Origin: a virus | Virus record (IMG/VR): IMGVR_UViG_3300025131_000013 | Location: 29,476 to 93,475 of that record | Length of the DNA stretch: 64,000 nucleotides | Reading direction: 5' to 3' (one strand) | Shown here: positions 1,787 through 53,704 of the stretch, in pieces | Layout: each line of letters starts with the position of its first letter | Position numbering within the stretch: position 1 is the stretch's first letter | Position numbers and translations under genes: made by a program | Notes under the pieces: model-generated | What the model was told of the DNA's origin: nothing | Database searches by the model: none | What the model saw: the letters and a program-made list of their open reading frames with translations, nothing else

Positions 1787-3910
1787 GTGAATAAGTTTGA
1801 AGGTAAGAATTTTGTGAATCCGGGCAATGTTAAGATTGATGATCCCAAGGCCGCGATTGCTATCGAAGCTCAGATCCTTTCGGATTTGATTATTGATCGA
1901 AAGCAAACCGGCCATGAATCATTGGGTGATAAGGATGCCCTGATCCAAGTAGCTCATGATGTTGATTGGGTTACTCTCCGAATAGCCAAGAGGCTTATTA
2001 AGGAGGCAGGACCACGAAAAGCTATCGCGCTTGCTCAACTAGCGTCAGGGAATCTCTTTACTCCGCATAACGAGATACGGACGATAGAGAGAAAGCCCGG
2101 GAAATCATGTGCATTCTTCTCTGACGGTCGTTCCTTCTATACGGGTGGTCGCTACAGCGTTTTTATGCACGCCGTCTTACTGGCCGAGGTGATGAATGTC
2201 ACTTGGCTGACTGATGAACCCCTTCCGTTTGAGTCAGACTTCCCAGATCATAAGGTCAAGGTCATTGAAGACGCTCGGATATTTGAGCGGAAGATGGAGG
2301 ATCTTGGTGTTGACTTTGTAGTTGGACTCCCCAATCTATCAGGACAAGCTGCAGCCGCTTATTCGGAGCAGTTCAAGATCCCCTATTATTTGGTGATGTT
2401 TGAATCGCCGAATTTCATCAAGGAGTTCAGGAGTGATGGGGAAGATGCGAAGGAAACCTACTGGACTGACTATAAGAAGTGTATGCGTGGTTGCGACGCT
2501 GTTATCGCTCATAGCAATGTTAGTGCGGACTTTACTCGTGATTGGCTCTCTGACGGAGAAGGTAGACTCCCTCCAGTCCGAGTAACTCACCCTACGTGGA
2601 ATAAGACAATACTTGACGCTGAACTGTTTAGCCAGCTCAAACCTAGAGAGGGTGTGGTAATTTGCTCCCGCTCTGCTCCGTTCAAAGATCCGTATGCTCT
2701 GCTAGTTGAGCTGGATAAGATAGGCTTTAAAGAGCGAGTGGTAATAATCGGAAAGACTTGGAAGACAGATCGTTACGAGAAGGATTGGTCTTTTGAGTTG
2801 ATCCTATACGGGACTATCTCAGATACTAGAAAGTTCTCGTATCTGAAGCAAGCCAAAGTTCTCGCTATGCCCTCCCAATTTGAAGGATTTGGGATGCCTC
2901 CAATGGAGGCACTGGCGTGCGGAACTCCGGTGATCGCTTATGATCTGCCCGTTCTTAAGTCGATTTATGAAGGGGAGATTGTCTACACCCCTATAGGTAA
3001 TGCTGGTTTGATGGCACGGCGTATAGTAGAGGCGTGTGATCCTGAGATCAGAGACATACCTTTCCAATCAAAGCCAATCCTCAAAAAGCTCTCCCCGCGT
3101 AGTGCGTTAACTTCCCTAAAGCGCGCCTTCCCAGGCCCATTAACACTTGGAGTAGGCATTATTGCCTACGATATAGGGGATTGGGTAGGAAAGGCAATTG
3201 AGAACGCCGCCCAGTATGCTGACGAGGTCTATATTGTCCACGGACGGTGCGCTGACTTCCCTGAAGCTCCTCACGGAGACCAGCATACGATTGAGGAGAT
3301 TGAGCACGCCATCTCTCAGATAGACGTTCCGGTGTTCTTCCATCGGCTGGGAGAGCATATCCCTCCGACTAAGGTTGCTCTCCAAAACTTCATCGCCGAA
3401 CGGGTTGAGACCGACATCTATATGAAGCAGGATGCGGATGAGTTCTGGCATCCAGAAGATGTTCAGAAGGCTCTGGAGATGTTCGTTGAGGATGAGGAAT
3501 TGGACATCATCCGAGTGTCCTGGCATCACTTCTGGAAGAATTTGAAGCAGGTTACTTGTGATGCCGGAGGTCAGTGGACGAATAAGCACCCTCGCTTCTG
3601 GAGATGGAACTCAGGGTTCTCCCATACCTTTACCCATAACAACTTTGTCGACGCAGATGGTATAGAAGTCAGACCACCGGACTATCCAGAGGTTGTAACA
3701 GACCTAACCTGCTATCACTGCGGGTATGCTCGGGGTGAAGAGTATGTCCAGCGCAAGATCGAGTTCTATCGGGATAGGGGAATTGAGAAGGATGTTAAAG
3801 ATACCTATACCGATTGGAAGCCTGGAGATCGGACTCAGCCTACCCAGCACGCTAATGTGAATAGCTGGGTCGAGCCGTTCAAGGGTAAGTTGCCGGAGAT
3901 CCTGAAATGA
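1787..3910 (+). CDS. Two-domain glycosyltransferase (GT4-like + GT2-like)
   Basis: This 707-residue protein starts with GTG after AGGAG (1774-1778). The N-terminal half is a GT-B glycosyltransferase of the GT4 group: residues about 364-385 read FEGFGMPPMEALACGTPVIA, the nucleotide-sugar-binding signature with its conserved Glu. The second half, from about residue 450, begins GVGIIAYDIGDW and contains QDADEFW near 547-553, a DxD-type metal motif of a GT-A (GT2-like) enzyme. One chain could therefore add two sugars. It opens the glycan cassette directly after the head genes and overlaps the next gene by four bases. The acceptor is unknown; capsid or tail protein, or host envelope glycan, are possibilities. 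Confidence 0.75.
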   Translation: MNKFEGKNFVNPGNVKIDDPKAAIAIEAQILSDLIIDRKQTGHESLGDKDALIQVAHDVDWVTLRIAKRLIKEAGPRKAIALAQLASGNLFTPHNEIRTIERKPGKSCAFFSDGRSFYTGGRYSVFMHAVLLAEVMNVTWLTDEPLPFESDFPDHKVKVIEDARIFERKMEDLGVDFVVGLPNLSGQAAAAYSEQFKIPYYLVMFESPNFIKEFRSDGEDAKETYWTDYKKCMRGCDAVIAHSNVSADFTRDWLSDGEGRLPPVRVTHPTWNKTILDAELFSQLKPREGVVICSRSAPFKDPYALLVELDKIGFKERVVIIGKTWKTDRYEKDWSFELILYGTISDTRKFSYLKQAKVLAMPSQFEGFGMPPMEALACGTPVIAYDLPVLKSIYEGEIVYTPIGNAGLMARRIVEACDPEIRDIPFQSKPILKKLSPRSALTSLKRAFPGPLTLGVGIIAYDIGDWVGKAIENAAQYADEVYIVHGRCADFPEAPHGDQHTIEEIEHAISQIDVPVFFHRLGEHIPPTKVALQNFIAERVETDIYMKQDADEFWHPEDVQKALEMFVEDEELDIIRVSWHHFWKNLKQVTCDAGGQWTNKHPRFWRWNSGFSHTFTHNNFVDADGIEVRPPDYPEVVTDLTCYHCGYARGEEYVQRKIEFYRDRGIEKDVKDTYTDWKPGDRTQPTQHANVNSWVEPFKGKLPEILK

Positions 3911-4785
3911 GGATTTGTATAATCAGGAACAATAATCCGGGGCACGTCCAGATAGCAGATATGCTCTGGAGGTCAGCCTTAAGACTAGGGCATACTCCTG
4001 TTCTTGCCGGGGCAAATGATATGTCCCCAAGACCAGCGGATATGACCATCCTAGTCAATATCGTCCCTAAAGCTATGGCGGCAGTCAATAAGGCTACTGG
4101 GACTCTCGGCAGGATACGTAATAAGGTGTATATCAATCTTGAGAACTTGCCTTTTGCCGAGGGCAGTGGTCAGTTCGAGAGATACAGGATCAAAGAGTTT
4201 AACGCCCAGATAGAGATTTTCAATCCTGGCTGCGTAACACTCTGCGACCCCGGAGTGTATGATCGGGTGTCCCTTAAGAAGCTAGGCGTGATGATGCCTC
4301 GCCAGTTCTACGATAAAGGGTTCTTGTATGATCCAGACTTCCATAGGGATCTAAGGATGCTTAAGGATTTGGGAGCTTGTTTTATAGGGAGCTTGAGCGA
4401 GGACAGGAAAGAGAAGTTGGCGTCTATTCGGAAGGTGAATGTCTTTCGATCCTGGGGGTATGAGAAGGTATCCTTGATGAACCGACACGCCATCTCCCTG
4501 AACTTCCAAAAGCGGGATGAGCACAACTTCAAGACGTATAGGGCAGTAGACGCGATAATGTGTGGGTGCCTGTTCTTAACAGAGCAGGATGACTTCCATA
4601 CTACTTTCCCTGATGATTGTTATGTCTCAGTCCCGATAGAGGATATGCCTGAGGCGGTGGAGTATTATCTTGAACACTCCAACGAGAGGGAAAAGATAGT
4701 AGGTTTGGCCCAGGAGTTCATCAAGAGTAATTTTGGAGTAGACCAGTATCTAAGTGGACTAGTAGAGGAATTTCAAGATGCCTGA
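3907..4785 (+). CDS. CgeB-like glycosyltransferase
   Basis: This 292-residue protein starts at an ATG that overlaps the previous stop by four bases (ATGA). The C-terminal part (about 210-285) has the pattern of the Glyco_trans_1_2/CgeB group: a YRAVDAIMCGCLFLTEQDD segment followed by a helix with YYLEHSNEREKI. In this group the region forms the nucleotide-sugar-binding half of a GT-B fold. The N-terminal half starts as a Rossmann-like strand (MRICIIRNN). Sugar donor and acceptor cannot be read from sequence. It is one of three related enzymes in the cassette, which suggests several sequential transfers. Confidence 0.65.
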   Translation: MRICIIRNNNPGHVQIADMLWRSALRLGHTPVLAGANDMSPRPADMTILVNIVPKAMAAVNKATGTLGRIRNKVYINLENLPFAEGSGQFERYRIKEFNAQIEIFNPGCVTLCDPGVYDRVSLKKLGVMMPRQFYDKGFLYDPDFHRDLRMLKDLGACFIGSLSEDRKEKLASIRKVNVFRSWGYEKVSLMNRHAISLNFQKRDEHNFKTYRAVDAIMCGCLFLTEQDDFHTTFPDDCYVSVPIEDMPEAVEYYLEHSNEREKIVGLAQEFIKSNFGVDQYLSGLVEEFQDA

Positions 4786-6070
4786 TAAAGTTGATGGCTT
4801 GCGGGATATAGTGAATAATCTGAAGAAGAAGGATCGAGACTCCACTATCTTGTTCACCGAAGAAGAGATCATGGAGATTCGTCACGGTCAATCTTCAGAA
4901 GAGGACAGGAAAGCCTTGTTTGATGCCGTCAGGGAGAGGCCAGGATTCCAAGCTCCTGGAGCAGCAGCTCACGCCAGCAGACCGGAGATGATCGCTAGAG
5001 AAGGGCAGGAGAATATGACTAGTGATCAACTAGCTGATCTCCTTATGCTCAAGCTACAGGTAACTCCTCAGCACAAGATACCTTTCACGGGGACTAAGGT
5101 CAATGTCAATAGTTGGTCTAACGCGACTAGGACATTCAGATGTTGGGGAGACTACTGGGCCTGGATGCAATTGGGTCGTGCGTTTACTGAATTGGGCTAC
5201 CATTTTAATGTTGATCCTGGGATCTCTGACGTCACAGTGTATCTGAGGGGCGGTCGATTCAAGACCGACGATCATTGGCAGGTCCCAAATCGGATCAACC
5301 CAAATACCCACAATATTGTCTGGATCTATTCTCATCCGGACGACATATCGAGTCTTGAGCTTCGGGACTACGATGAGGTATGGTGCCTCTCCCAGAAAAT
5401 GGTCGATCAAGTTCAGGCTTACGGGCACAAGGGATTAGTTGAGACTCCTATTACTTCGTGCACAAACATGGTGGAGCCTTCTACAGTCGATGACCGCTTC
5501 GACGTAGTATTTATCGGGAATGCCCGAGGTCAGACAATTAACGAGGATGGTAGGGACGTCATCCAGATGCTGAAGGATCGATCGGATCTAAACGTAGGCA
5601 TCTACGGGATGAAGTGGGATCTCCCTCATCTTAGCTGGGTAGTAGATCGAGGATGGTGGCAGGGTGACTACTACGCCTACTACAAGCTACCAAGACTCTA
5701 CAGCGGAGCAAAGGTAGTCCTGAATGATACTCACCCCGATATGGCTAGGTTCGGGTTCATCCCGATGAAGCTATTCGATATCATTAGATCAGGTGGATTC
5801 CCGATCACGGACGGCATCGCTGGTCTTGAGGAGAAGCTCCCAGAGATAGCTGTCTATGAAAGCAAGAAGAATCTCAACGATCTGATTGACTATTACCTGG
5901 AGGAATCAGACGAGCGGACTGAGAGACAGCGCGATATGTGGTATCGTATCAAGGATGATACCTTTACCGCAAGAGCAGCAGAAGCAGTCGAGAGTTCTCA
6001 TTACGAGGGATGGAAGTCAAGAGAGTCAGTATCGCAGGAGATGTTCGATGTCCACCGAGTTGAAGCTTGA
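4778..6070 (+). CDS. CgeB-like glycosyltransferase with N-terminal extension
   Basis: The protein has 430 residues, and its ATG lies eight bases inside the previous gene behind GAGGAA. Residues 1-100 are charged, helical and without recognised domain. The catalytic part starts near residue 105. Residues about 326-352 (FIPMKLFDIIRSGGFPITDG) and the following DYYLEESDERTERQRD helix repeat the C-terminal signature seen in the genes at 3907 and 6638. This places it in the same GT-B group. The extension could bind the acceptor or another cassette protein. It overlaps the methyltransferase start by 23 bases, implying translational coupling. Confidence 0.65.
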   Translation: MPDKVDGLRDIVNNLKKKDRDSTILFTEEEIMEIRHGQSSEEDRKALFDAVRERPGFQAPGAAAHASRPEMIAREGQENMTSDQLADLLMLKLQVTPQHKIPFTGTKVNVNSWSNATRTFRCWGDYWAWMQLGRAFTELGYHFNVDPGISDVTVYLRGGRFKTDDHWQVPNRINPNTHNIVWIYSHPDDISSLELRDYDEVWCLSQKMVDQVQAYGHKGLVETPITSCTNMVEPSTVDDRFDVVFIGNARGQTINEDGRDVIQMLKDRSDLNVGIYGMKWDLPHLSWVVDRGWWQGDYYAYYKLPRLYSGAKVVLNDTHPDMARFGFIPMKLFDIIRSGGFPITDGIAGLEEKLPEIAVYESKKNLNDLIDYYLEESDERTERQRDMWYRIKDDTFTARAAEAVESSHYEGWKSRESVSQEMFDVHRVEA

Positions 6071-6641
6071 GGTAGGGTGCGGCGGTAGATTGCCTGGAGG
6101 CTATATCGGAGTAGATATAGTCCAGACTAAGGCAGTCAAAGGGAAGCCGTTTATCTATGGTGAGGCTGCTAAGATACCGTTTCAAAGCGGGACGGTAGAT
6201 GAGGTATCCTGCTGTCATATGGTAGAGCATCTTGACCCTAGATACTTTGTGAGTTGTCTACTTGAATGGCGTAGAGTTCTGAAGGTAGGCGGGGCGTTGG
6301 TTATCCAATGCCCTAATGCTATTGTCTACCTAGAGGAACTTCTTGAGTTCTTTAGAGATGGTGGATTACCTCGCGCACCACGGCTAGAGCCGCAGAGGTA
6401 TCCAGATGAGATGAAGAACCGACCGTATGAGATGTGGCCTATAATCCAGGTCACCGGACTTGCTTCGATAGGAGACCATATGGTTAATCGGAATCACTTC
6501 TCTATAGAGCATCTGAGATTCTACGTCGAGATATACGGTGGCTTTGAGATAAAGGAAGCCAAAGTCAAAAGGACTAGGCAGAGTCACGGAATCGAACATC
6601 GACCTGACGGAGATTTAATTGTCCGAGGAACAAAAAGATGA
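6048..6641 (+). CDS. SAM-dependent methyltransferase (class I)
   Basis: This 197-residue protein is taken to start at the ATG at 6048, seven bases after AGGAG (6036-6040). The open frame extends further upstream but without a better start. Motif I is LEVGCGGRLPGGYIGVDI (about 7-24), typical of the SAM-binding loop followed by an acidic strand end. DEVSCCHMVEHLD and RRVLKVGGALVIQCPN are the usual later motifs. It resembles the methyltransferases that act on sugars or small molecules in polysaccharide clusters. Its position between glycosyltransferases suggests O- or N-methylation of the glycan. Confidence 0.7.
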   Translation: MSTELKLEVGCGGRLPGGYIGVDIVQTKAVKGKPFIYGEAAKIPFQSGTVDEVSCCHMVEHLDPRYFVSCLLEWRRVLKVGGALVIQCPNAIVYLEELLEFFRDGGLPRAPRLEPQRYPDEMKNRPYEMWPIIQVTGLASIGDHMVNRNHFSIEHLRFYVEIYGGFEIKEAKVKRTRQSHGIEHRPDGDLIVRGTKR

Positions 6642-17885: not shown

Positions 17886-20203
17886 TGGCTACATATAGCT
17901 TCTGGCAATCAAAGACGGTAGCTCAATTATCTTCGATTACGGATGGCGTGACTGATGCCGATAAGGCATATATGGAGGCTAATCCGTTTGACCAGATAGC
18001 TGCTATGTTCTCGGAACTAGGATCTGGCCCTAGTGGTAGTCTTATTGATCTGACGGTAAGACTGGCCGTATCGTTACAGGCTGATGGCGATTTAATACCT
18101 GGCTCTGTTACACTAGCCATAGACGGTCAAGATATATCTGTAAACGACCTGTTCGTATCAGGCATAACTAGCTTTAACGCTGTCCAGTATACATGGACTG
18201 GATCAGACGGTGGAGCCGGGGATGTTCTGACTACGGATGGTGGGGGTAGTCTTACTTGGACCACTCCTACTGTTTCCTCGCCTCTCTGGACTCAGTCAGG
18301 CAACGATATATACTACCCGTCTGGCGGAGTAGGAGTTGCCGGAAACGTAGGAATTGGATCTAGTTCATCCCCCAGCCACAGATTTACTGTTCAACAAACT
18401 GGATCTGCCTTCGTAGTCCTTAATAATGCTGGGACAGTATTCTTTGAGGTTGATACTAGCCTCAATACGATAACTGCTCCTACGGTTGGAGTGACTACTA
18501 CGATCTATACTCTTGAAGCCACTAATTCGTTTGATGTTGGCTCGGGTAGCTTTACGGTTAATAGTGTAGGCAATACCGATATAGCCGATGACCTTAAGGT
18601 AGATGGCCACACAGGGTTGGGTGCTGGTGCTACCCCTTCGTCAAATCTGACGTTTTGGATACATAATACGCTTGGCGCAGGAGGAACTGTCTATAACTTT
18701 GTGAATCAGCTAGTTGTTAGTGGGGCCAATACTGACGTATATGGGCAATGGAATACGGTAGGGACTTCTGCCGCCGTAGCACTTACCAATATCTATAATC
18801 TCCGTATAACTGAGGGATCAAAGACCCCAGGCACTACGATCACAAATCAGTATGGCGTCCTTATAGGGACGTTAAATGATGCTTCCAATAACTGGGGCAT
18901 ATGGTGCGAGACAGACTCGGTATTTACCGGGACTCTTAAGGTTGGGCCGGATAGTGCCTTCCTGAATGCCTCTCATGGATTCAGAGTAGAAGTAGATCAA
19001 GCGTTCAATGCTGGCCTTGAAGTAGTCAACATAAATAGTAATGGATTTGCTGCAGCCTCTATGGACTTGAGAAGGACTGCTACTGGAGTAAGCGGTCATC
19101 ATGTAGGCATCTTTAACGTCACTGGTAAGGATACAGCCGGCAACATCCATCAATATGCGAATGTTATTTTTTCATCAGAGATAGCGACCTCTGGTGGAGA
19201 GATGGGCCAGATATCTCTGTATGTAGCAGAGTCAGGAGTAGACACCCAAGAGTATTTGAGAATCTCTGCTAACAATACGGCTATTTCTCTGAAGGGGAAC
19301 ATCCTTCCTCTGTCAGGTGATGATACGGGTCAGATAGGTGATACATCTGATAGGTTTTCAAAAGGATATTTTGCTGATTCGGTATCATCCGGTGCTACTG
19401 TTGCCCCAGGAACAAGTGGAGCATATGTATACCGATTTGTTGCTCACAGCACTGCCGCTGAAGGAGTCTACTCACAATGGACTAACTCTGCTACCGGAAC
19501 TGGAGCAGACCAGGGCTTTGTAATTGGAATTGATTCAACAGGTCAAGGGATTCTTTATAATAACGAAGCTCAGAATATCTTGTTCTATACTGCTGGCGTT
19601 CAGGCAATGATTATAGAGACTGGAACTGAATTTCTTGGGATCGGGCCATCAACCACCACCCCCGCTTATCGAATTGATACCCAGGGTGTTGCCTCGAATG
19701 AGGCATACCGCATTTCTACTGATGTAGTTGACGGCGCAGTATGGTTTATTTGGAATAATGATGCCCGAACTTGGTGGGGTGGAGTCAGAACGGATGATTA
19801 CTGGGCCCTTTGGGATCAAACCGGAGCCAATTATCGCCTTGTAATAGCCACTAATGGAGATATCTCAGGAACTCACGGAACTTACCATATATCGTCTGAT
19901 GAGCGTCTTAAGACAAATGTTGTTCCGATAGAGAATGCTTTAGCTACTGTATGCCAGATGGAGGGTGTTCACTATAATTGGATAACCCCTCCTTACAAGC
20001 GAGAAGGAAAGCAGACTGGGATGATAGCTCAGCAGATTTATGGAATAGCCTCTGAGCTCACTCAGACAGCAGATGATGAAATGGCTACTATGTCAATTAA
20101 GGATGACATCAGTGTTGACGCATACTTAGTTGAGGCAATTAAGGAACTTAAATTAGAAAATGATGATTTGAGAGCAGAAATCGAGATTCTGAAGGCGATA
20201 TAG
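17885..20203 (+). CDS. Tail fibre with C-terminal S74 chaperone domain
   Basis: This 772-residue protein is Ser/Thr/Gly-rich and repetitive in its middle, as in trimeric fibres. The C-terminus from about residue 665 is a peptidase S74 intramolecular chaperone: SSDERLK (670-676) contains the catalytic Ser and nearby Lys, then GVHYNWI, TGMIAQQIYGI and SVDAYLVEAIKELK. In this family the domain guides trimer folding and cleaves itself off just before the Ser. The end is a short coiled coil. The mature fibre would therefore be about 670 residues. It probably binds a host surface receptor. Confidence 0.85.
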   Translation: MATYSFWQSKTVAQLSSITDGVTDADKAYMEANPFDQIAAMFSELGSGPSGSLIDLTVRLAVSLQADGDLIPGSVTLAIDGQDISVNDLFVSGITSFNAVQYTWTGSDGGAGDVLTTDGGGSLTWTTPTVSSPLWTQSGNDIYYPSGGVGVAGNVGIGSSSSPSHRFTVQQTGSAFVVLNNAGTVFFEVDTSLNTITAPTVGVTTTIYTLEATNSFDVGSGSFTVNSVGNTDIADDLKVDGHTGLGAGATPSSNLTFWIHNTLGAGGTVYNFVNQLVVSGANTDVYGQWNTVGTSAAVALTNIYNLRITEGSKTPGTTITNQYGVLIGTLNDASNNWGIWCETDSVFTGTLKVGPDSAFLNASHGFRVEVDQAFNAGLEVVNINSNGFAAASMDLRRTATGVSGHHVGIFNVTGKDTAGNIHQYANVIFSSEIATSGGEMGQISLYVAESGVDTQEYLRISANNTAISLKGNILPLSGDDTGQIGDTSDRFSKGYFADSVSSGATVAPGTSGAYVYRFVAHSTAAEGVYSQWTNSATGTGADQGFVIGIDSTGQGILYNNEAQNILFYTAGVQAMIIETGTEFLGIGPSTTTPAYRIDTQGVASNEAYRISTDVVDGAVWFIWNNDARTWWGGVRTDDYWALWDQTGANYRLVIATNGDISGTHGTYHISSDERLKTNVVPIENALATVCQMEGVHYNWITPPYKREGKQTGMIAQQIYGIASELTQTADDEMATMSIKDDISVDAYLVEAIKELKLENDDLRAEIEILKAI

Positions 20204-39639: not shown

Positions 39640-40202
39640 TTGGAAGGGAGCAACGCTATCAGAAGGCTGGACTCCCGAATAGGTATTGGAAGGTAAGACC
39701 TCTCATCTATGTTCGCGAGGAAGGTTTAGAGACGAAGTTTGGAGGGATTGTAGAGGCCTGTAGGGGCTATGACCAGGATGTAACATACGGAGTCGTTATA
39801 GAATCCCGTAAGGAAGGGATCAGGCCTGCATTCGGCGCGGCAGTCCTTAAGTATCTAATGGCTCTGAATAACGTCCAGGGATGGTGGCGGTCCTTTACGC
39901 GCCTATCTGGGTTCATACGGTCTACGAAGTTTGATCAACCTGCTTGGGATACTTTTGTTGATTGGCTTTGTCGGCCTACTGGACAGATTCTTTTGATCGA
40001 GAATATGTCCGCAAAGACGATGGCTAATCTTGACGATGAAGAACGGATACGGCTGCTTGATTTCTTCCAACAGTTATTCCAGAACGGATGCCTTGTTATC
40101 ATAACCACGACTGATAATCAAGACCGATTTGAGAAGATGCTTGGTGAAGACCTAGCAGCCCTCTTGAGTGATAACCTCGGAACGTGGGGCAAATTGGGAT
40201 GA
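39636..40202 (+). CDS. DnaC-like helicase loader with degenerate ATPase motifs
   Basis: The 188-residue protein overlaps its upstream neighbour by four bases. QKAGLPNRYWKV (9-20) is the hallmark start of DnaC/DnaI/IstB-type AAA+ domains. The end shows CLVIITTTDNQDRF (152-165), a sensor-1 strand, and an ALLSDN (175-180) ending like the SRL region. The expected P-loop position reads YGVVIESRKEGIRPAF (51-66) without GxxGxGKT, and Walker B reads QILLIEN (117-123) instead of two acidic residues. It probably loads the DnaB helicase encoded next, but in an ATP-independent or accessory way. Confidence 0.6.
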   Translation: MIGREQRYQKAGLPNRYWKVRPLIYVREEGLETKFGGIVEACRGYDQDVTYGVVIESRKEGIRPAFGAAVLKYLMALNNVQGWWRSFTRLSGFIRSTKFDQPAWDTFVDWLCRPTGQILLIENMSAKTMANLDDEERIRLLDFFQQLFQNGCLVIITTTDNQDRFEKMLGEDLAALLSDNLGTWGKLG

Positions 40203-41635
40203 AGTTCTATGATCTTGGCCTTGAAAGATCGGTGCTACAAGCTATTCTCTATGATTTCCCTACACTTGTTAGGTTTTCTACCCGTCACCTCCTTACGCCT
40301 GAACACTTTTCCGATCTCTCATATCGGCGTATCTTTCGCGCGATCAAGTCTGTGTATAAAGATGGTGCGGGCAAGCCTAACTCGAAGTTGGTCCGTCGAA
40401 GATTACAAAAAACGAAAACTCCAAAGGCACGCGATAAGGTGCTTTCGGTCTTTGAACGCCTTAAGAAGCCAGACGAGGATGGACTCCATAATGCTGATGC
40501 TTACTTGGATGAACTTTCATCCTTGTTTGAAGGGCGACGACTCCAATTCCTTGTTAAAGATATGGCAGGATCGTTGGCAGATGGAGACATCGCAGACGCA
40601 CTAGCCGCAGTCCAAAAGATGACTTCTACTACGGACGCAGGCGTCCAGGTAGATGAGGCTGACTTCCTTGATATATTTGAGGATACGATTGAGCTGGATA
40701 AGCAGAAGAAGCAATACCCTGAGTTATTCAAGAGATACCCGACAGGGATAAAGGGAGTTCATCCGACTACCGGAGAGAATATTGACGCCGACAAGCATAT
40801 CTTGAACGGCGGCTTGATGAGAGGGACTCTCACTATAATAGGCGGGGATACGGGACTCGGCAAGAGTAAAACACTTAGCCACATATTTAGATACGCAGTT
40901 CGTCGGCACTCCAAAGGGGTGTTTATGACGAATGAGAACGCTTTGTCTCAAGTCCAGACAGATTTCATCTCAGGGATTGTCGGTATTGACTTCAATAGGA
41001 TTGACCGAGGTTTGCTGGATGAGCAAGACTATGTCAAGATTAGGGCGAAGCTCAAGTATTATAAGAAGCTAGGGGCTGAGGCTAAGATTGTCAGCTTTCC
41101 AGAGGTTTCGACTGTCGGGGCATACAGAGCGAAGCTATTGGAGTGGAAGCAACAAGGGTTTGTTGCAGACTTTAGCGTCATAGATTACTTGAACGAGATG
41201 AATCAAGAAACCGGCGCGGATTCAAAAGGAGATTGGTCGGGGATAGGTGAGATAACTGCAGATCTCTGTGGTGTATCAAAGAGTTGGGATACTACTGTTG
41301 AGCTAGATAATGGGTATAAGATAATGGGTATGCCTATTGTTACAGCGTCCCAAAAAAAGACAGGCTCAGCAGGTAAGTCCTTTGCTAAAACTGAAGACTT
41401 GGCTTACTCCCCCGTTCCTGGACAGCTAGCAGCTTGTGTAGGCCAATTAACTCAAGACCCAGATATGGAGGAACTCGGAGTTATTGACCTAGCCTTTACA
41501 AAGTGTAGATTCGGAAAGCCGGGGAAGTTAAGGCTGTATCCTGACTTTGCTAAATCTCGTCTACACTCCAAGAAGAAGCACAGCGAATCAGTGATGGACA
41601 ACTCTTATGACTTAGGAGATGGTGAAGATGAGTGA
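40199..41635 (+). CDS. dnaB: Replicative DnaB-type helicase
   Basis: The protein has 478 residues from the ATG at 40199 that overlaps the loader stop (ATGA); a GTG five codons earlier is possible. The N-terminal helical domain (LERSVLQAILYDFPTLVRF, then HFSDLSYRRIFRAI) is the DnaB N-domain. The RecA-like motor has GGDTGLGKSKT with Lys222 in Walker A, ADFSVIDYLNEM as Walker B region, and a late PIVTASQKKTG (glutamine sensor). It should form a hexamer that unwinds the fork and contacts the primase encoded at 61507. Together with the loader and DnaE it makes a bacterial-type replisome. Confidence 0.85.
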   Translation: MKFYDLGLERSVLQAILYDFPTLVRFSTRHLLTPEHFSDLSYRRIFRAIKSVYKDGAGKPNSKLVRRRLQKTKTPKARDKVLSVFERLKKPDEDGLHNADAYLDELSSLFEGRRLQFLVKDMAGSLADGDIADALAAVQKMTSTTDAGVQVDEADFLDIFEDTIELDKQKKQYPELFKRYPTGIKGVHPTTGENIDADKHILNGGLMRGTLTIIGGDTGLGKSKTLSHIFRYAVRRHSKGVFMTNENALSQVQTDFISGIVGIDFNRIDRGLLDEQDYVKIRAKLKYYKKLGAEAKIVSFPEVSTVGAYRAKLLEWKQQGFVADFSVIDYLNEMNQETGADSKGDWSGIGEITADLCGVSKSWDTTVELDNGYKIMGMPIVTASQKKTGSAGKSFAKTEDLAYSPVPGQLAACVGQLTQDPDMEELGVIDLAFTKCRFGKPGKLRLYPDFAKSRLHSKKKHSESVMDNSYDLGDGEDE

Positions 41636-41981
41636 GGATAAGGATGTGACAATGAATCCTTTTTGGGGAGACCCAGAGAAGGTTTGGGTTCCGTTTAATG
41701 GATGTAAGTTGCTTAAGTCTGACTATATAAAACAGGACGATACCGCTTTTCACGTAGGTGAATTGTTTTTTGTATCCGGCGATACTATGTCGGACATCCA
41801 GACAGCATTTAGAACCGGGTCTCAACAGAGAGTCAAGAATATCCTGAGTCGTATTATCGTAGTTGAGTGCGGGCTGTTGGTTAGTCTTTTTGACAAGAAG
41901 GAGTGGATTCATGCTGTTGACGAAATCAAGACAGAAAAAGCTCGGTCTAAGTCAGAGGTGGAAGCAGAAGCGGAGTCTTGA
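41628..41981 (+). CDS. Unknown protein after DnaB
   Basis: The 117-residue protein is taken from the ATG at 41628, nine bases after AGGAG and inside the helicase stop; an ATG at 41619 is also possible. The central part (FHVGELFFVSGDTMSDIQTAF, then SRIIVVECGLLVSLFDKKEW) is compact alpha/beta. The end is charged (KSEVEAEAES). No family recognised. The next gene starts inside it. Confidence 0.5.
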   Translation: MSEDKDVTMNPFWGDPEKVWVPFNGCKLLKSDYIKQDDTAFHVGELFFVSGDTMSDIQTAFRTGSQQRVKNILSRIIVVECGLLVSLFDKKEWIHAVDEIKTEKARSKSEVEAEAES

Positions 41982-43032
41982 TCTCCCGGCAAGTCTTTGG
42001 GAGCAAGAACTCGCCCATATTAAGCAGTATGGGCCGGGAGGAATGAAGAGATTGGGAGGCCAAAAGGCTTACCCAGATATTGCTTTGATTCGGAAGGATA
42101 TCAAGAGGAACTATACTGAGGTATTCACTCGGGATGATAGTCGAAAGCAGATCCGGTGGCCCCTTAACTTGGAGTATACCTGCTCCGGATTCTTCTTGAA
42201 CAATGGACCTTCTCATTGTGGGGTAGTTATACCAACAGAGGGTAGGCCCGAATTGTTGGAGCGGTGCCTCAGGACGATACAAGAGAAGGCAATGCTGCGC
42301 CTTCCGGTCCTTATAGTAGACGATGGCGCTAAAAAGCCAGTCAAGAAACTGGACTTTATCAAGCACAAGAAGGAACTCTTTGATTTCCCGATTGTTGTGA
42401 AGCGACCGGCAAAGTTGTCGGGAGTCAAGGATGGGGAGCGTTTGGGTGCCGGATTCGGCAGAGCCTTTGGGCAGCAATACTGGCACGCCAGAGAGAGGCA
42501 TTGGGTAATCCAGATGGATGATGATGCCTTCATCCATAACCATTGCTTCGAGAATCTCTACGCCAACGCAATGATCAATGACAACTACGGGATCATCGGG
42601 GCGATGGGATCCTTCCGGCAATTCTATCAGGGGAACTGGAGAGATGAGCACTCTATCAATGCGATCGGCGTCTGCTATATTGTTAATAAATGGGCTATTG
42701 ATCTATGCGGGAATTTCGACCGCAGGATGCGCGCAAGGCAGGATGTCGATTTGGCTATTAGGATGTGGCTTAATGGCTTTCGTGTTTGTGTGCTCCCTAA
42801 AGCTGATGTTGACCACGTTCGGTTCAGGACCAAGAAGGAAGAAGATCCAGAACGGGTAGAGATGTTCGAGCAATGGAAGGTTGATGCCGGGAACCTTCTT
42901 AAAAAGAAGTATAGCAAATTCGGGCTGAAAGCCAGCGCGAGTGGTGTCCTCCGCTATATGGAAGCCTTCGAGAAGCAGGGCTTTGTCCGTATGGCCTGGA
43001 GGAAAACGAAGGCAGGACTAAAGGCCAAGTAA
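41911..43032 (+). CDS. GT-A glycosyltransferase (GT2/TAGT-like)
   Basis: The 373-residue protein is taken from the ATG at 41911, eight bases after AAGGAG. After a basic N-terminus the fold starts at about 104 with CGVVIPTEGRPELLERCLRTI. PVLIVDDGAKKP follows, then WVIQMDDDAFIHNHCF (about 197-212, DxD-type metal motif), and QDVDLAIRMWLNGF (about 277-290), the typical ED-x-D-motif helix. It lies between DnaB and a methyltransferase, far from the virion glycan cassette. DNA glycosylation, as by the TET-associated glycosyltransferases of some phages, is therefore one possibility. The acceptor is not visible. Confidence 0.65.
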   Translation: MLLTKSRQKKLGLSQRWKQKRSLDLPASLWEQELAHIKQYGPGGMKRLGGQKAYPDIALIRKDIKRNYTEVFTRDDSRKQIRWPLNLEYTCSGFFLNNGPSHCGVVIPTEGRPELLERCLRTIQEKAMLRLPVLIVDDGAKKPVKKLDFIKHKKELFDFPIVVKRPAKLSGVKDGERLGAGFGRAFGQQYWHARERHWVIQMDDDAFIHNHCFENLYANAMINDNYGIIGAMGSFRQFYQGNWRDEHSINAIGVCYIVNKWAIDLCGNFDRRMRARQDVDLAIRMWLNGFRVCVLPKADVDHVRFRTKKEEDPERVEMFEQWKVDAGNLLKKKYSKFGLKASASGVLRYMEAFEKQGFVRMAWRKTKAGLKAK

Positions 43033-43493
43033 TGTTTGTCCATGTAATCAGATACGCTTCGTTCAAAGATGACTCGCTAGGGTTTGCTATGATAGACGGA
43101 AGGTTTATTTGTCATACTTTGGAGGATGAGGATCGGACAAAGAAGGTGTCTGGTGAGACTAGGATACCTGACGGTCTGTATCAATTGGGCGTTCGCCATG
43201 ATAGCCCTAAGTTTAAGCATTTTGATGATAGGTGGGGTTGGCATAACGGGATGATTTGGATTAAGCACGTTCCAAATTTTACCTATGTCTATGTCCATCC
43301 CGGTAACGATGATGATGACTCAGATGCTTGTCTACTTACTGGTGATCACGTCTACCGGAAGTCAGGTAAGGACGCCCATAAGCTCGGTAAATCCAGGGAA
43401 GCCTACAAGAGGTTTTACTGTAACATCAGGCCGTGGTTAGATCTGCCTGGTCCACTCGATCCAGTCATAATAAGGGTAAGTTCGTATGCTTAA
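43032..43493 (+). CDS. DUF5675-like protein
   Basis: The 153-residue protein shares one base with the previous stop. SLGFAMIDGRFICHTLEDEDR, GETRIPDGLYQL and YVYVHPGNDDDDSDACLL match the compact beta fold of DUF5675 proteins known from phages and bacteria, which has a conserved LEDxxR and G-E-T-x-I-P-x-G. A relation to peptidoglycan or lysis enzymes has been proposed for such folds but no catalytic mechanism is established. Here it is embedded among modification-type genes. Confidence 0.6.
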   Translation: MFVHVIRYASFKDDSLGFAMIDGRFICHTLEDEDRTKKVSGETRIPDGLYQLGVRHDSPKFKHFDDRWGWHNGMIWIKHVPNFTYVYVHPGNDDDDSDACLLTGDHVYRKSGKDAHKLGKSREAYKRFYCNIRPWLDLPGPLDPVIIRVSSYA

Positions 43494-44130
43494 CAAGAAC
43501 GTCAGTCCATACAGGTATTGGGATGCTAGATATAAGTCTTTTGGTGGCCCGGAATCGGTATTCAATAAATCGGGTGCTCATCGGGCTATGTATCTGGAGG
43601 CAGTATCTGCTTGTCTTCCGGTAGTGAATCGCAAGAGGAATGTTCGTATTCTTGATTTAGGTGCCGGCCCAGGATTAATGGGGTATATACTACATTCCAG
43701 AGGTCATATTGGGGAGAGGGATACCTACAGAGCGGTTGATTTCTCTAGAGAGGCAGAGAAAGGGTTTGGTGAATACTTTGTAGGTAGGAACGGGTATGAT
43801 TTCACTCGGGCTGATCTATCTTATACCTTGCTTCCTGAAGTGAGGGAGGAAAAATGGGATCTGATTATTTGTACAAAGTGTCTTGAGCATCTTACAGATG
43901 ACGTTAAGATAGTGAGGATGATGATTCGCCTACTAGATACGGACGGGCGTATTGTCATTGCTGTCCCCAGATATACAGACCTTTCGTATTTATTTTCCAC
44001 AAGGAAATATGTGACTCCTAGTCCTATAACAGATCTTTTGAAGAAGTCCAGCCTGCATGCTGACTCTAAGCAAGTTGATGGATGGTGGGTTATCTCAGGG
44101 GATACAAGGAAGAACTCATGGTTATTGTAG
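43486..44130 (+). CDS. SAM-dependent methyltransferase
   Basis: The 214-residue protein overlaps the previous gene by eight bases. VRILDLGAGPGLMGYIL is motif I, YRAVDFSREA motif II, WDLIICTKCLEHLTDD motif IV and DGRIVIAVP motif V of class I methyltransferases. The N-terminal YRYWDARYKSFGG segment resembles small-molecule or nucleic-acid methyltransferases. No target recognition domain is visible, so a sequence-specific DNA methylase is unlikely. It could methylate the product of the adjacent glycosyltransferase. Confidence 0.7.
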   Translation: MLNKNVSPYRYWDARYKSFGGPESVFNKSGAHRAMYLEAVSACLPVVNRKRNVRILDLGAGPGLMGYILHSRGHIGERDTYRAVDFSREAEKGFGEYFVGRNGYDFTRADLSYTLLPEVREEKWDLIICTKCLEHLTDDVKIVRMMIRLLDTDGRIVIAVPRYTDLSYLFSTRKYVTPSPITDLLKKSSLHADSKQVDGWWVISGDTRKNSWLL

Positions 44131-44243
44131 CTGGCATTCTTAATCAATTGGGTCAGGGCAAGAAGAATCCGTATGGGCCAATCTTCAGGGATGTAGATAT
44201 AGATAGGGAGGAAGCGAAAGATGGTCTTTCTGAAGAAGGCTGA
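44118..44243 (+). CDS. Possible small protein (41 aa)
   Basis: An ATG behind AAGGAAG (44107-44112), inside the end of the methyltransferase gene, opens a 41-codon frame. It runs 23 bases into the next gene. The product (MVIVAGILNQLGQGKKNPYG and an acidic end) has no recognised domain. The ribosome binding site and tight packing are the only support. Confidence 0.35.
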   Translation: MVIVAGILNQLGQGKKNPYGPIFRDVDIDREEAKDGLSEEG

Positions 44244-44733
44244 CATGAATAAGGCCATCGACGTTTGTGGTCATAATACTCTGCCTCGTAGATTTATGCT
44301 GGATATGGAGGAAGAATATGGCTTCGCTTACTGGGTAAGCGGAGTCTTGTTCTGGTTAATGAGGCCAGTAATGGCGGACTCCAATCGATATGATTTGATG
44401 AGGTTCTTTAGGGTTCATCGGAAGATCAGAGAAGTAGGATACGCAATCCATGAAGATATACCGACTCAGTTTAATCTGGTAGACGGCCAGGTAGATGGGA
44501 CTTACAATGCCCAATATGAAGTCTTTACAGACCTGCGCCATGCCCGGTATGTTGATGATGATTTGACGGACTGGACAAAGAAGGAGGTGAAGATCTGTAA
44601 GAAAGCAGCCAGTAACTTCCTCTCGGACCAAGCATATGGCGATTTAACCAAGTGGTGTCGTGCTGCTGCTCAGAAGCGTCTAGGTTTGAGAGAGCGGCAA
44701 TTACTCGTAGCTCATTTTGTAGACGGAGGTTGA
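44221..44733 (+). CDS. Unknown helical protein
   Basis: The 170-residue, mostly helical protein starts behind AGGGAGGAAG. Aromatic and charged residues alternate (YGFAYWVSGVLFWLMRP, then RFFRVHRKIREVGYAI), and a Cys-containing helix lies near the end (KKEVKICKKAASNFL). One hydrophobic segment (about 36-52) could be a membrane anchor or a protein core. No family recognised. Confidence 0.5.
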   Translation: MVFLKKADMNKAIDVCGHNTLPRRFMLDMEEEYGFAYWVSGVLFWLMRPVMADSNRYDLMRFFRVHRKIREVGYAIHEDIPTQFNLVDGQVDGTYNAQYEVFTDLRHARYVDDDLTDWTKKEVKICKKAASNFLSDQAYGDLTKWCRAAAQKRLGLRERQLLVAHFVDGG

Positions 44734-44734
44734 G

Positions 44735-45052
44735 ATGAAAGGCATTCCTGTAGTCAAGAATATTGGAAGAAAGGAAGCCCAGGAAGTGGCCAAGGCAGCT
44801 AGGTCGAAGGCCGAAGGGCTGAGGCAACTCGTAGAGTATCCAGACAAGCTAGCAGATATTATTGGTCGAGAGGCTCTGCTTCAAGTCGAGGTGTTTCAGC
44901 TTACTGACCAGGCTACTTCTGATCTTCCGAATGAGAAGTTGATTGAAGTGAACGAGTTGCTTGATCGGAAAGCAACTAAGCTCGCAGATCTTCTGAAGGA
45001 GAAGAAGAAGATCCAGGCTCTGATGGCTGGTAAGTCCAAGAAGAAACATTAG
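44735..45052 (+). CDS. Coiled-coil protein, unknown
   Basis: The 105-residue protein follows the previous gene by one base. It is helical throughout, rich in Lys, Glu and Ala, with heptad-like leucines in its second half (LIEVNELLDRKATKLADLL) and a basic tail. Function unknown. A DNA- or protein-binding accessory of the replication module is plausible. Confidence 0.5.
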   Translation: MKGIPVVKNIGRKEAQEVAKAARSKAEGLRQLVEYPDKLADIIGREALLQVEVFQLTDQATSDLPNEKLIEVNELLDRKATKLADLLKEKKKIQALMAGKSKKKH

Positions 45053-45292
45053 ATGATAACAATCCCTTACTATGAGATGTTTACTCCGGATGAGCAGGAG
45101 TTGGACACCCTCAATAAGGCTGGCGTTGAAGCCAACAAGGCAGGGTTTCGTTTTCACGCACAGAAGTGGTATCGTAAGATAGGGATGATTGGAGTTTCCC
45201 TTCCAGTCTTCCAGGAATCAAGAGAACAGCCGCTAACACTGGAGGATATTAAGGAATGGGAGCGAGTAAAAACGCAAGACGAACCCTTATAG
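45053..45292 (+). CDS. Unknown small protein
   Basis: The 79-residue protein's ATG abuts the previous TAG. It contains FHAQKWYRKIGMIGVSLPVF, a single compact hydrophobic stretch, and an acidic C-terminal helix. The end carries the ribosome binding site and start of the next gene (overlap 37 bases). No domain recognised. Confidence 0.45.
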   Translation: MITIPYYEMFTPDEQELDTLNKAGVEANKAGFRFHAQKWYRKIGMIGVSLPVFQESREQPLTLEDIKEWERVKTQDEPL

Positions 45293-46170
45293 AACTTGCT
45301 AAGGCGGCATTGATTGTCGTCGAGCGAGACGCTATGTATGGGAAGGAGTCTGTCACTCGACTTGGATTGAGAGGCAGATTCATGGATTTAGACCGGAAGT
45401 ATGCTCGGCTGAAGGAGCAACTCTGGGATCATCCGGTTGATCCAAAAGAAGATGAGAACTTTGAGTCTATTTTGGATGACCTTCGGGATCTTTGTAATTA
45501 TAGCGGCCTAGCGATTCCGGTATTGAGGGATGAGGCCGGCAAGAAGTATAAGAAATCGGAGTATAAGGACGCTGCTGCGCTCTTTTTGAAGTTCGCTCTC
45601 ACACTCGACCCAGAGATGAGAAAGCCCGCCCCGTATATCGAACCGAAACTAGAGATGGAAGCTGAGGAAACGGCTTCTACAGAGCCGGAGAAAAAGTCCA
45701 AGCCAGTTGTTAAGAACAAGAGGACGAGGCGTTCTGAGGTAGAGAGGAAGCTGAAGCTGCTCGACGGAGATGATATTGCCGAGACTGCTTTTGATGCTTC
45801 GACCAAGATCGACGGTATGACGGCTGAGGCCGCATCTCTGATGATGTATTCTTGGGCTAAGCTGGATAATCTTGGTAAGGGTGGTGAGACCAACCCTCTT
45901 TCATCGGCCCAACTTAAGCCGAAGGCAATTGCCAAGAAGGTTGTTAACGATGATGATGTCGTTGATAGTGTGATGAAACATTGCGGTCTTTCGGACAAGA
46001 AGGAGATGATAGTTCTGGCTGAGAAGTTCTTTGAGTTCGCTCTTGTGGAACTTGATATTATAGAAGGCGATAAAGCAGCTGATCCGAAGCAAATGACTAA
46101 GACAGCTAAGGCAGACCCTGAGGTAATTGGTCGAAGCGGTGACGATACAGTCCTCGAAGTGAACGACTGA
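45256..46170 (+). CDS. DUF1599 (Nmad1)-like domain protein
   Basis: The 304-residue protein starts behind GGAGG. Residues about 10-95 (ALIVVERDAMYGKESVTRLG, RGRFMDLDRKYARLKEQLW, ILDDLRDLCNYSGLAI) follow the DUF1599 pattern, also named nucleotide-modification-associated domain 1. It has a Y-G motif, an F-x-D-x-x-x-K-x-x-R-L helix and a D-L-x-x-Y-x helix. In phages this domain occurs next to enzymes of modified nucleotides. The middle is a charged linker (about 130-165) and the end a second helical domain (NDDDVVDSVMKHCGLSDKKE). Its neighbours include a glycosyltransferase and a methyltransferase. Confidence 0.55.
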   Translation: MGASKNARRTLIELAKAALIVVERDAMYGKESVTRLGLRGRFMDLDRKYARLKEQLWDHPVDPKEDENFESILDDLRDLCNYSGLAIPVLRDEAGKKYKKSEYKDAAALFLKFALTLDPEMRKPAPYIEPKLEMEAEETASTEPEKKSKPVVKNKRTRRSEVERKLKLLDGDDIAETAFDASTKIDGMTAEAASLMMYSWAKLDNLGKGGETNPLSSAQLKPKAIAKKVVNDDDVVDSVMKHCGLSDKKEMIVLAEKFFEFALVELDIIEGDKAADPKQMTKTAKADPEVIGRSGDDTVLEVND

Positions 46171-52901: not shown

Positions 52902-53129
52902 ATGCAAGTCCAATATAGTTCTGGAATGGTTCTCGTCCTTGAGGGTGAGAAGAATTGTATCAGAGTGGATGAAGATCTTACAAACGCAAAGCTGACGCTC
53001 GTTATATTCAAGGGGAAATTTCAAGATCCTGGCGCAAGGATGATCGGAGAGGTGGAGCTTACTGACTATGGCTTGGACTCTCTATTTAATAAGCTAGAGC
53101 GGATGAGACGGGAGAGAGGCAAGTCGTGA
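52902..53129 (+). CDS. Unknown small protein before UDG
   Basis: The 75-residue protein starts after AAGGAG. It is beta-rich in the first part (MVLVLEGEKNCIRV, LTLVIFKGKF) with a C-terminal helix (YGLDSLFNKLERMRRER). It overlaps the next gene by four bases. No family recognised. The context suggests DNA repair or replication. Confidence 0.45.
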   Translation: MQVQYSSGMVLVLEGEKNCIRVDEDLTNAKLTLVIFKGKFQDPGARMIGEVELTDYGLDSLFNKLERMRRERGKS

Positions 53130-53704
53130 AACTCTCAAACTGTCGCGAGTGTAGCCTCTGCAAGAAACAAGACTCTGGGTTCAGAAGAACTCAGGTCGTT
53201 CTAGGCAGAGGCTCACCAGAATATCGGATTATGTTTGTTGGTGAAGCACCGGGGGATTATGATGATCGAAACGGGAAGCTATTCTGGCCTGAAGATCCGG
53301 CAGGTGAGATGTATGATAAGATACTGAAGAACTTGAGTTTAAGGCGCGAGATGGTATATACTACTACCGCTGTCAAATGTCGGCCAACTCAGGTCGGACC
53401 TGCTGGCCCGAAGAACCGACCACCCTCTGGCGTAGAGATTGAGACGTGCCGTAGATGGTTGCGTCGAGAGATCATTAAGCAGAATCCAAAGTTAATCGTA
53501 ACTCTGGGTGCTGCCTCTCTTAAGTCAGTAGTAGGCGTGGACGGCGTGATGAGGCATGCAGGAAGATTGGTAGATTGTAGTGAGTTCAAGTGCTATGCCT
53601 TTCCTTTGCTTCATCCTGCCTCAATCATAAATGATCACAGTCGCAAGCAACAGATGAAGAAGGATATTGTAACTCTGCGAGCGGTAATTAAGGAGGTCTA
53701 CTAG
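53126..53704 (+). CDS. Uracil-DNA glycosylase, family 4 type
   Basis: The 192-residue protein starts with GTG that overlaps the previous stop (GTGA). Cys6, Cys9, Cys85 and Cys108 are candidates for the iron-sulfur cluster. Motif A is GEAPGDYDD (39-47), then TTTAVKCRP (79-87) and PKLIVTLGAAS. Motif B is HPAS with His163. All match family 4 uracil-DNA glycosylases, which remove uracil from DNA. Phages use such enzymes for repair after cytosine deamination. A variant acceptor specificity is possible. It abuts RecA. Confidence 0.75.
   Translation: MKLSNCRECSLCKKQDSGFRRTQVVLGRGSPEYRIMFVGEAPGDYDDRNGKLFWPEDPAGEMYDKILKNLSLRREMVYTTTAVKCRPTQVGPAGPKNRPPSGVEIETCRRWLRREIIKQNPKLIVTLGAASLKSVVGVDGVMRHAGRLVDCSEFKCYAFPLLHPASIINDHSRKQQMKKDIVTLRAVIKEVY

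What the first reader, a model, noticed from the sequence alone, without database searches (positions are those of the whole stretch)
41911..46170. Possible DNA or nucleotide modification group within the replication module
A GT-A glycosyltransferase, a DUF5675 protein, a methyltransferase and a DUF1599/Nmad1-like protein sit together between DnaB and the polymerase. DUF1599 and TET-associated glycosyltransferases are linked to modified bases in phages by published comparative genomics. No target-recognition domain or thymidylate-synthase-like enzyme is visible here, so the pathway would be incomplete.
Basis: inference. Interest (0 to 1): 0.6.

Follow-up and report, generated by a model that had tools for sequence, protein, structure and literature searches.

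The report
Phage ThyX-linked nucleotide-modification gene set
A phage carries glycosyltransferase, methyltransferase and nucleotide genes beside its DNA polymerase, and just past the edge of the window it also carries an odd thymidylate-synthase-like enzyme paired with a flavin enzyme, a pairing that recurs in dozens of phages and could be a new route to chemically modified phage DNA, though no modification has been shown.

Summary
In detail: a GT2-type glycosyltransferase, DUF5675, a class I methyltransferase and a protein with a DUF1599-like N-terminus lie between DnaB and a DnaE polymerase. TAGT is not supported (no profile match). DUF1599 fails the Pfam profile but is supported transitively. 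DUF5675 looks cell-wall-related, not DNA-related.

The window is part of a 93.5-kb record, and synteny with a ~70%-identical relative places an oxidoreductase–GT-B–ThyX block 0.7–4 kb past the window's right end. In 45 loci of phages and viral contigs, ThyX lies downstream of a homologous UDP-galactopyranose-mutase-like flavoenzyme. DnaE is within 6 kb in 35, a methyltransferase in 14, DUF1599-like ORFs in 13 and a glycosyltransferase-like ORF in 3. All 45 ThyX lack the tyrosine reported as strictly conserved and catalytic; 33 of 34 unlinked phage ThyX keep it. In SP-15, whose DNA is known to be hypermodified, the ThyX proposed to make hydroxymethyl-dUMP also lacks it, and its paralogue keeps it.

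Best reading: an altered ThyX makes a C5-modified pyrimidine nucleotide that DnaE incorporates; glycosylation may follow. A modified base is plausible (~0.4), this GT acting on DNA less so (~0.3). Nucleoside mass spectrometry would decide.

The parts
40184..41635 (+). DnaB-like replicative helicase
   Evidence: Pfam DnaB_C 3.4e-11; phrog_19 7.8e-39
42043..43032 (+). GT2-type (GT-A) glycosyltransferase with a DDD motif at 42517-42525; an alternative in-frame ATG is at 41911
   Evidence: Pfam Glycos_transf_2 1.3e-7; no TAGT match; weak phage relatives in Klebsiella jumbo phage MJ359 and Mycobacterium phage Farewell; AF2 model unusable
43032..43493 (+). DUF5675 protein, probably cell-wall-related rather than DNA-related
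   Evidence: PF18925 9.6e-24; relatives annotated peptidoglycan hydrolase or L,D-transpeptidase, or lying beside portal genes
43486..44130 (+). class I SAM-dependent methyltransferase, substrate unknown
   Evidence: Methyltransf_23 4e-10; no DNA-methyltransferase family among its Pfam matches; not a close relative of the ThyX-linked MTase family
44221..44733 (+). protein of unknown function, 170 aa
   Evidence: no Pfam or PHROG match
45256..46170 (+). 304-aa protein with DUF1599/DUF6378-like N-terminal domain, directly upstream of DnaE
   Evidence: phrog_1485 6.5e-5; matches DnaE-linked Rooney gp53 and Hager gp55 and the MTase-DUF1599 fusion in L024
46269..50306 (+). DnaE-type DNA polymerase III alpha
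   Evidence: Pfam DNA_pol3_alpha 3e-75; phrog_405 1.2e-290
53126..53704 (+). uracil-DNA glycosylase superfamily protein
   Evidence: PF03167 7.4e-26

Best explanation
The finding is the replication-side half of a split nucleotide-modification gene set. Shown by sequence: (i) a GT2 glycosyltransferase, DUF5675, a SAM methyltransferase and a DUF1599-like protein between DnaB and DnaE; (ii) elsewhere in the same record, contiguous by synteny with the window's right end, a UGM-like flavoenzyme, a GT-B glycosyltransferase and a ThyX whose conserved catalytic Tyr is Ile and whose RHR motif is RQR; (iii) ThyX of this altered kind travels with a homologous flavoenzyme and DnaE in many phages. Inferred: losing the tyrosine, described as a solvent lid and acid catalyst, turns the C5-methylene intermediate towards a product other than dTMP, most simply 5-hydroxymethyl-dUMP. 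The flavoenzyme acts on that product or on its donor, the DUF1599-like protein handles the nucleotide pool or hands nucleotides to DnaE, and DnaE incorporates the altered nucleotide. More speculative: the GT-B and GT-A enzymes then glycosylate the base in DNA. DUF5675 is probably not part of this.
For: ThyX at record 3034-3948 (Thy1 4.9e-26), no ThyA in the record, synteny across the record's ends with L021. Oxidoreductase upstream of ThyX in 42 of the 80 viral-contig loci fetched plus 3 phage records, mostly touching it; DnaE within 6 kb in 35, MTase in 14, DUF1599-like in 13, GT-like in 3. Tyr lost in 45/45 linked ThyX, including the window phage's, against 1/34 unlinked; Ser kept in 15/45, His in 21/45, the Arg residues in 45/45. 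Tyr91 and Ser88 are called strictly conserved and critical (PMC8316439, PMC11940539), and Tyr a lid over C5 and N5 (PMC6514825); the numbering fits the M. tuberculosis alignment. SP-15, whose DNA is hypermodified (PMC5977210): gp9 keeps SRRY, gp130 has SNRT. The oxidoreductase has a UGM-like fold (Foldseek 1.2e-18; phmmer 3e-19). MTase-DUF1599 fusions sit directly after ThyX in L023 and L024, with a GT-like ORF downstream.
Against: No modified base has been measured. In the window phage the two gene groups are about 14 kb apart. Its ThyX is on a very long branch with unsure placement and its oxidoreductase matches the linked family only weakly (3.7e-4). The linked ThyX may reflect one ancestral change, and the Tyr association falls to p=0.014 at 50% identity and is not significant at 40%. 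Most linked phages have no GT or MTase nearby. GT-B is absent from the 70% relative. Pbunavirus has the same pair, and I found no report that its DNA is modified (one search, no hits). SP-15 gp130 is very divergent, has no RHR motif, and its role is the authors' hypothesis. The window MTase is not close to the ThyX-linked MTase family.
Confidence: 0.4

Rival explanations
1. Ordinary thymidylate supply plus unrelated cargo. ThyX makes dTMP despite its altered motif, the DUF1599-like protein is a housekeeping nucleotide companion of DnaE, and GT, MTase and DUF5675 are accessory genes. No base is modified.
For: ThyX linked to DnaE and small DUF1599/DUF6378-like proteins is widespread without GTs; the Arg residues of the motif are kept in 45/45; no ThyA or second Thy1 in the record, so dTMP supply would be a natural role.
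Against: Loss of a tyrosine reported as strictly conserved, with a more than 100-fold defect in Y91A, and a conserved flavoenzyme partner that a canonical ThyX does not need.
Confidence: 0.3
2. Glycan modification of the host surface or of virion proteins. The UGM-like flavoenzyme supplies a furanose-type sugar nucleotide, and GT-B and GT-A, with the MTase capping the sugar, decorate the envelope or virion.
For: UGM-like fold; the nearest homologue outside the phage family lies in a bacterial polysaccharide gene cluster (L009); GT's profile relatives in PDB include chondroitin synthase; GT's weak phage relatives occur in tandem GT pairs; DUF5675 next to GT points to the cell wall.
Against: The flavoenzyme is conserved next to ThyX in many phages that show no GT nearby. 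It fails the UGM profile and has Arg where UGM's His-loop histidine aligns. GT and MTase sit inside the replication operon.
Confidence: 0.25
3. One reading: a TAGT/Nmad1-type pathway acting on DNA, encoded within 41911-46170 alone.
For: GT has weak PHROG similarity to the T-even beta-glucosyl-HMC-alpha-glucosyltransferase family (0.0014), and DUF1599-like homology is supported transitively.
Against: No TAGT profile match in the record; DUF5675 is not a DNA-modification family; no oxygenase or hydroxymethylase inside these coordinates.
Confidence: 0.05

Closest known systems
Bacillus phage SP-15 (Thy1 pair gp9/gp130; dihydroxypentyl-uracil DNA)
   Same: Thy1-family protein lacking the catalytic Tyr, glycosyltransferases, a UDG-superfamily protein in the same phage
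   Different: SP-15 also keeps a canonical ThyX (gp9); no phrog_4828-like oxidoreductase near either Thy1 gene; the window phage has only one Thy1
Canonical ThyX (flavin-dependent thymidylate synthase, PF02511)
   Same: Thy1 domain, Arg residues of the RHR and SxR motifs, Ser of SxR in the window phage
   Different: Tyr91 equivalent is Ile, RHR is RQR, linked to a UGM-like flavoenzyme
UDP-galactopyranose mutase (eukaryotic type, 4dsg, 3ukh)
   Same: overall fold and dinucleotide-binding motif
   Different: no GLF (PF03275) match; the His-loop His is Arg; conserved beside ThyX in phages
Krampusvirus phage Hager, Streptomyces phage Rooney, Pbunavirus USP_3, Vibrio phage PVA7 DnaE regions
   Same: oxidoreductase and DnaE in all four, ThyX in all but the Rooney stretch read, phrog_1485-like gene in Hager and Rooney
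   Different: no GT, DUF5675 or MTase annotated in the stretches read
TET-associated glycosyltransferase (TAGT, PF20691)
   Same: both GT-A-type by family assignment
   Different: no profile match; closest profiles are generic GT2 families

Membership tests
TAGT glycosyltransferase (PF20691) | match to the curated TAGT profile | tested here: not met
   no match at E<=1 in Pfam scan nor at E<=10 in the whole record
TAGT glycosyltransferase (PF20691) | GT-A fold closest to TAGT/BGAGT enzymes | tested here: inconclusive
   weak phrog_842 hit 0.0014; AF2 model pLDDT 33, unusable
Nmad1 / DUF1599 (PF07659) | match to the Pfam profile | tested here: not met
   no match
Nmad1 / DUF1599 superfamily | homology through intermediate sequences | tested here: met
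   (links are individually weak)
Canonical ThyX thymidylate synthase | Thy1 domain | tested here: met
   4.9e-26, 9.6e-28
Canonical ThyX thymidylate synthase | conserved catalytic Tyr after SxR, and His of RHR | tested here: not met
   Tyr is Ile, RHR is RQR in the window phage
UDP-galactopyranose mutase | GLF profile PF03275 | tested here: not met
UDP-galactopyranose mutase | UGM fold | tested here: met
   Foldseek 3ukh 1.2e-18 on a pLDDT 70 model, TM about 0.6
UDP-galactopyranose mutase | His-loop histidine | tested here: not met
   Arg aligned to the His of GGHVIF; which His is catalytic is from my own knowledge
DUF5675 | PF18925 profile | tested here: met
   9.6e-24
Phage hypermodified-pyrimidine DNA pathway | pyrimidine C5-hydroxymethylase | tested here: inconclusive
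   Tyr-less ThyX is a candidate only
Phage hypermodified-pyrimidine DNA pathway | modified nucleoside in virion DNA | not testable with these tools
   needs mass spectrometry
Phage hypermodified-pyrimidine DNA pathway | hydroxymethyl-pyrimidine DNA kinase or pyrophosphorylase genes | not tested
   no profile search made for these in the record

The most novel reading that the evidence does not exclude
A widespread family of phage ThyX enzymes that lost the catalytic tyrosine makes C5-substituted pyrimidine nucleotides (for example 5-hydroxymethyl-dUMP) instead of dTMP, together with a UGM-like flavoenzyme: a flavin-based route to modified phage DNA, here followed by glycosylation.
Probability: 0.3. 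Interest if true: 0.85.

Novelty: new variant of a known kind. Interest (0 to 1): 0.55.

Why it matters
Phage base modification defeats restriction and other DNA-targeting defences. The known hydroxymethylases that I am aware of are ThyA relatives; a ThyX-derived enzyme has been proposed for SP-15 (PMC5977210). A defined sequence signature (ThyX without its tyrosine lid next to a UGM-like flavoenzyme) in cultured phages such as Hager and Pbunavirus makes the question directly testable and would flag modified DNA across many phages.

Tried and rejected
GT homologues: tblastn in phages (E 1e-3) and plasmids and single-sequence scans of viral and genome contigs gave nothing; E 10 gave weak GT2 relatives only. 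Single-sequence DnaE scan: no pattern matched; DnaE alignment scan returned only ~30%-identical polymerases, no close relative of the DnaB-DnaE region. GT AF2 model failed. GT versus the GT-like family of L023/L024/L053 by profile comparison: no support; that family has no PHROG or PDB match and its L024 member no Pfam match. TAGT in ThyX-linked phages: none above cut-off.

Full report
Observation. The window is G000:C1:29476-93475 of a 93,475-base viral record. The GT, DUF5675 and methyltransferase genes overlap end to start. Two of the named identities are weaker than stated. The GT has no TAGT match. The 304-aa protein has no direct DUF1599 match.

DUF1599-like protein. Its N-terminal ~110 residues match phrog_1485 (6.5e-5), Streptomyces phage Rooney gp53 and Microbacterium phage Hager gp55, both just upstream of DnaE, and the C-terminal part of a methyltransferase fusion in L024, where Pfam weakly sees DUF1599. 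An iterated local profile joins these with DUF6378-like proteins found beside many phage ThyX genes and with small proteins downstream of many phage DnaE genes. So the domain is a common companion of phage DnaE and ThyX, not a marker of modified DNA on its own.

DUF5675. Relatives in phages are annotated as peptidoglycan hydrolase or L,D-carboxypeptidase/transpeptidase, or sit beside the portal gene. No solved structure matched by sequence. I treat it as probably cell-wall-related; this rests on others' annotation.

The missing synthase. Outside the window, at record 672-2042, 2035-2943 and 3034-3948, lie an amine-oxidase-type flavoprotein, a GT-B glycosyltransferase and a Thy1/ThyX protein. 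No ThyA is in the record. L021, a viral contig with ~70% identical ThyX and oxidoreductase, runs without break from the homologues of the window's end into those of the record's start, so these genes follow the window's right end; the record probably broke at an acidic low-complexity repeat. L021 lacks the GT-B.

A recurrent pair. A ThyX alignment scan of viral contigs returned 80 loci. In 42 of them, and in three phage records, a phrog_4828-like oxidoreductase lies upstream of ThyX, in most cases touching it. The loci were chosen with an alignment that included linked phages, so the fraction is not a census. Of the 45 linked loci, DnaE is within 6 kb in 35, a methyltransferase in 14, a DUF1599-like ORF in 13, and a GT-like ORF in 3. 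L023 has oxidoreductase, ligase, methyltransferase, ThyX, methyltransferase-DUF1599 fusion, HAD, GT-like ORF and DnaE in order; L024 and L053 are similar. The window phage's own oxidoreductase is a distant member (3.7e-4 to the four-seed profile), 456 aa with a UGM-like fold but no GLF profile match and Arg at the His-loop position.

Active-site change. Linked ThyX lack the tyrosine after SxR in 45 of 45 loci, keep Ser in 15 and the His of RHR in 21, and keep all three Arg positions; unlinked phage ThyX keep Tyr in 33 of 34. The position equals Tyr108 of the M. tuberculosis enzyme (with PMC6514825) and Tyr91 of T. maritima, described as strictly conserved and critical (PMC8316439, PMC11940539). 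The association is not independent of ancestry: Fisher p is 0.0006 at 60% identity, 0.014 at 50% and 0.25 at 40%. A tree places the unlinked loci in one clade, apart from two contigs that begin inside ThyX (L042, L052) and the degenerate L159, and puts the window phage on a long branch.

Control from a phage with known modified DNA. SP-15 has two Thy1 proteins; its authors proposed gp9 as thymidylate synthase and gp130 as hydroxymethyluridylate synthase (PMC5977210). gp9 keeps SRRY; gp130 shows SNRT at the aligned place. gp130 is very divergent, so this is one weak supporting case.

Mechanism. Shown: gene content, linkage, residue changes. Inferred: without the tyrosine lid, the C5 intermediate meets water or another nucleophile and a C5-substituted nucleotide results; the flavoenzyme acts upstream or downstream of it; DnaE uses the product. 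Least certain: GT-B and GT-A glycosylate it in DNA. The GT could as well act on surface or virion glycans: its profile relatives in the PDB include chondroitin synthase, and its fold could not be predicted.

Verdict. The most interesting result is the Tyr-less ThyX and UGM-like flavoenzyme pair, which I did not find described in the papers searched; that library lacks most subscription journals.

Noticed in passing
L023:12190-15903: DnaE polymerase whose C-terminus looks like a fused uracil-DNA-glycosylase-type domain (by eye).
   Followed up: no
L023:11065-12033, L024:13588-14490, L053:9762-10634: A family with a GT-A-like DD motif, no match in PHROGs or PDB (and none in Pfam for the L024 member), between the ThyX genes and DnaE in L023 and L053 (downstream of ThyX in L024).
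   Followed up: partly
L007:1704-2705: Pbunavirus 'hypothetical protein' is the ThyX-linked oxidoreductase.
   Followed up: yes
L024:4675-5442: Adenylosuccinate-synthetase-like ORF (by eye) about 2.5 kb upstream of ThyX.
   Followed up: no
L002:1-584, 5974-6564, 18533-18928; L021:5277-6281: Paralogous proteins sharing a C-terminal domain, most with long acidic low-complexity stretches; the record seems to break in one of them.
   Followed up: partly
L009 (MT835622.1): A record labelled Bacteriophage sp. that looks like a bacterial polysaccharide gene cluster.
   Followed up: no
L159:8639-9466: Degenerate ThyX-like protein (RCR, no Tyr) upstream of DnaE, without the oxidoreductase, with a nucleoside 2-deoxyribosyltransferase nearby.
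   Followed up: no
L002:11400-11954: Response-regulator receiver domain protein encoded by the phage (Pfam 4.9e-10).
   Followed up: no
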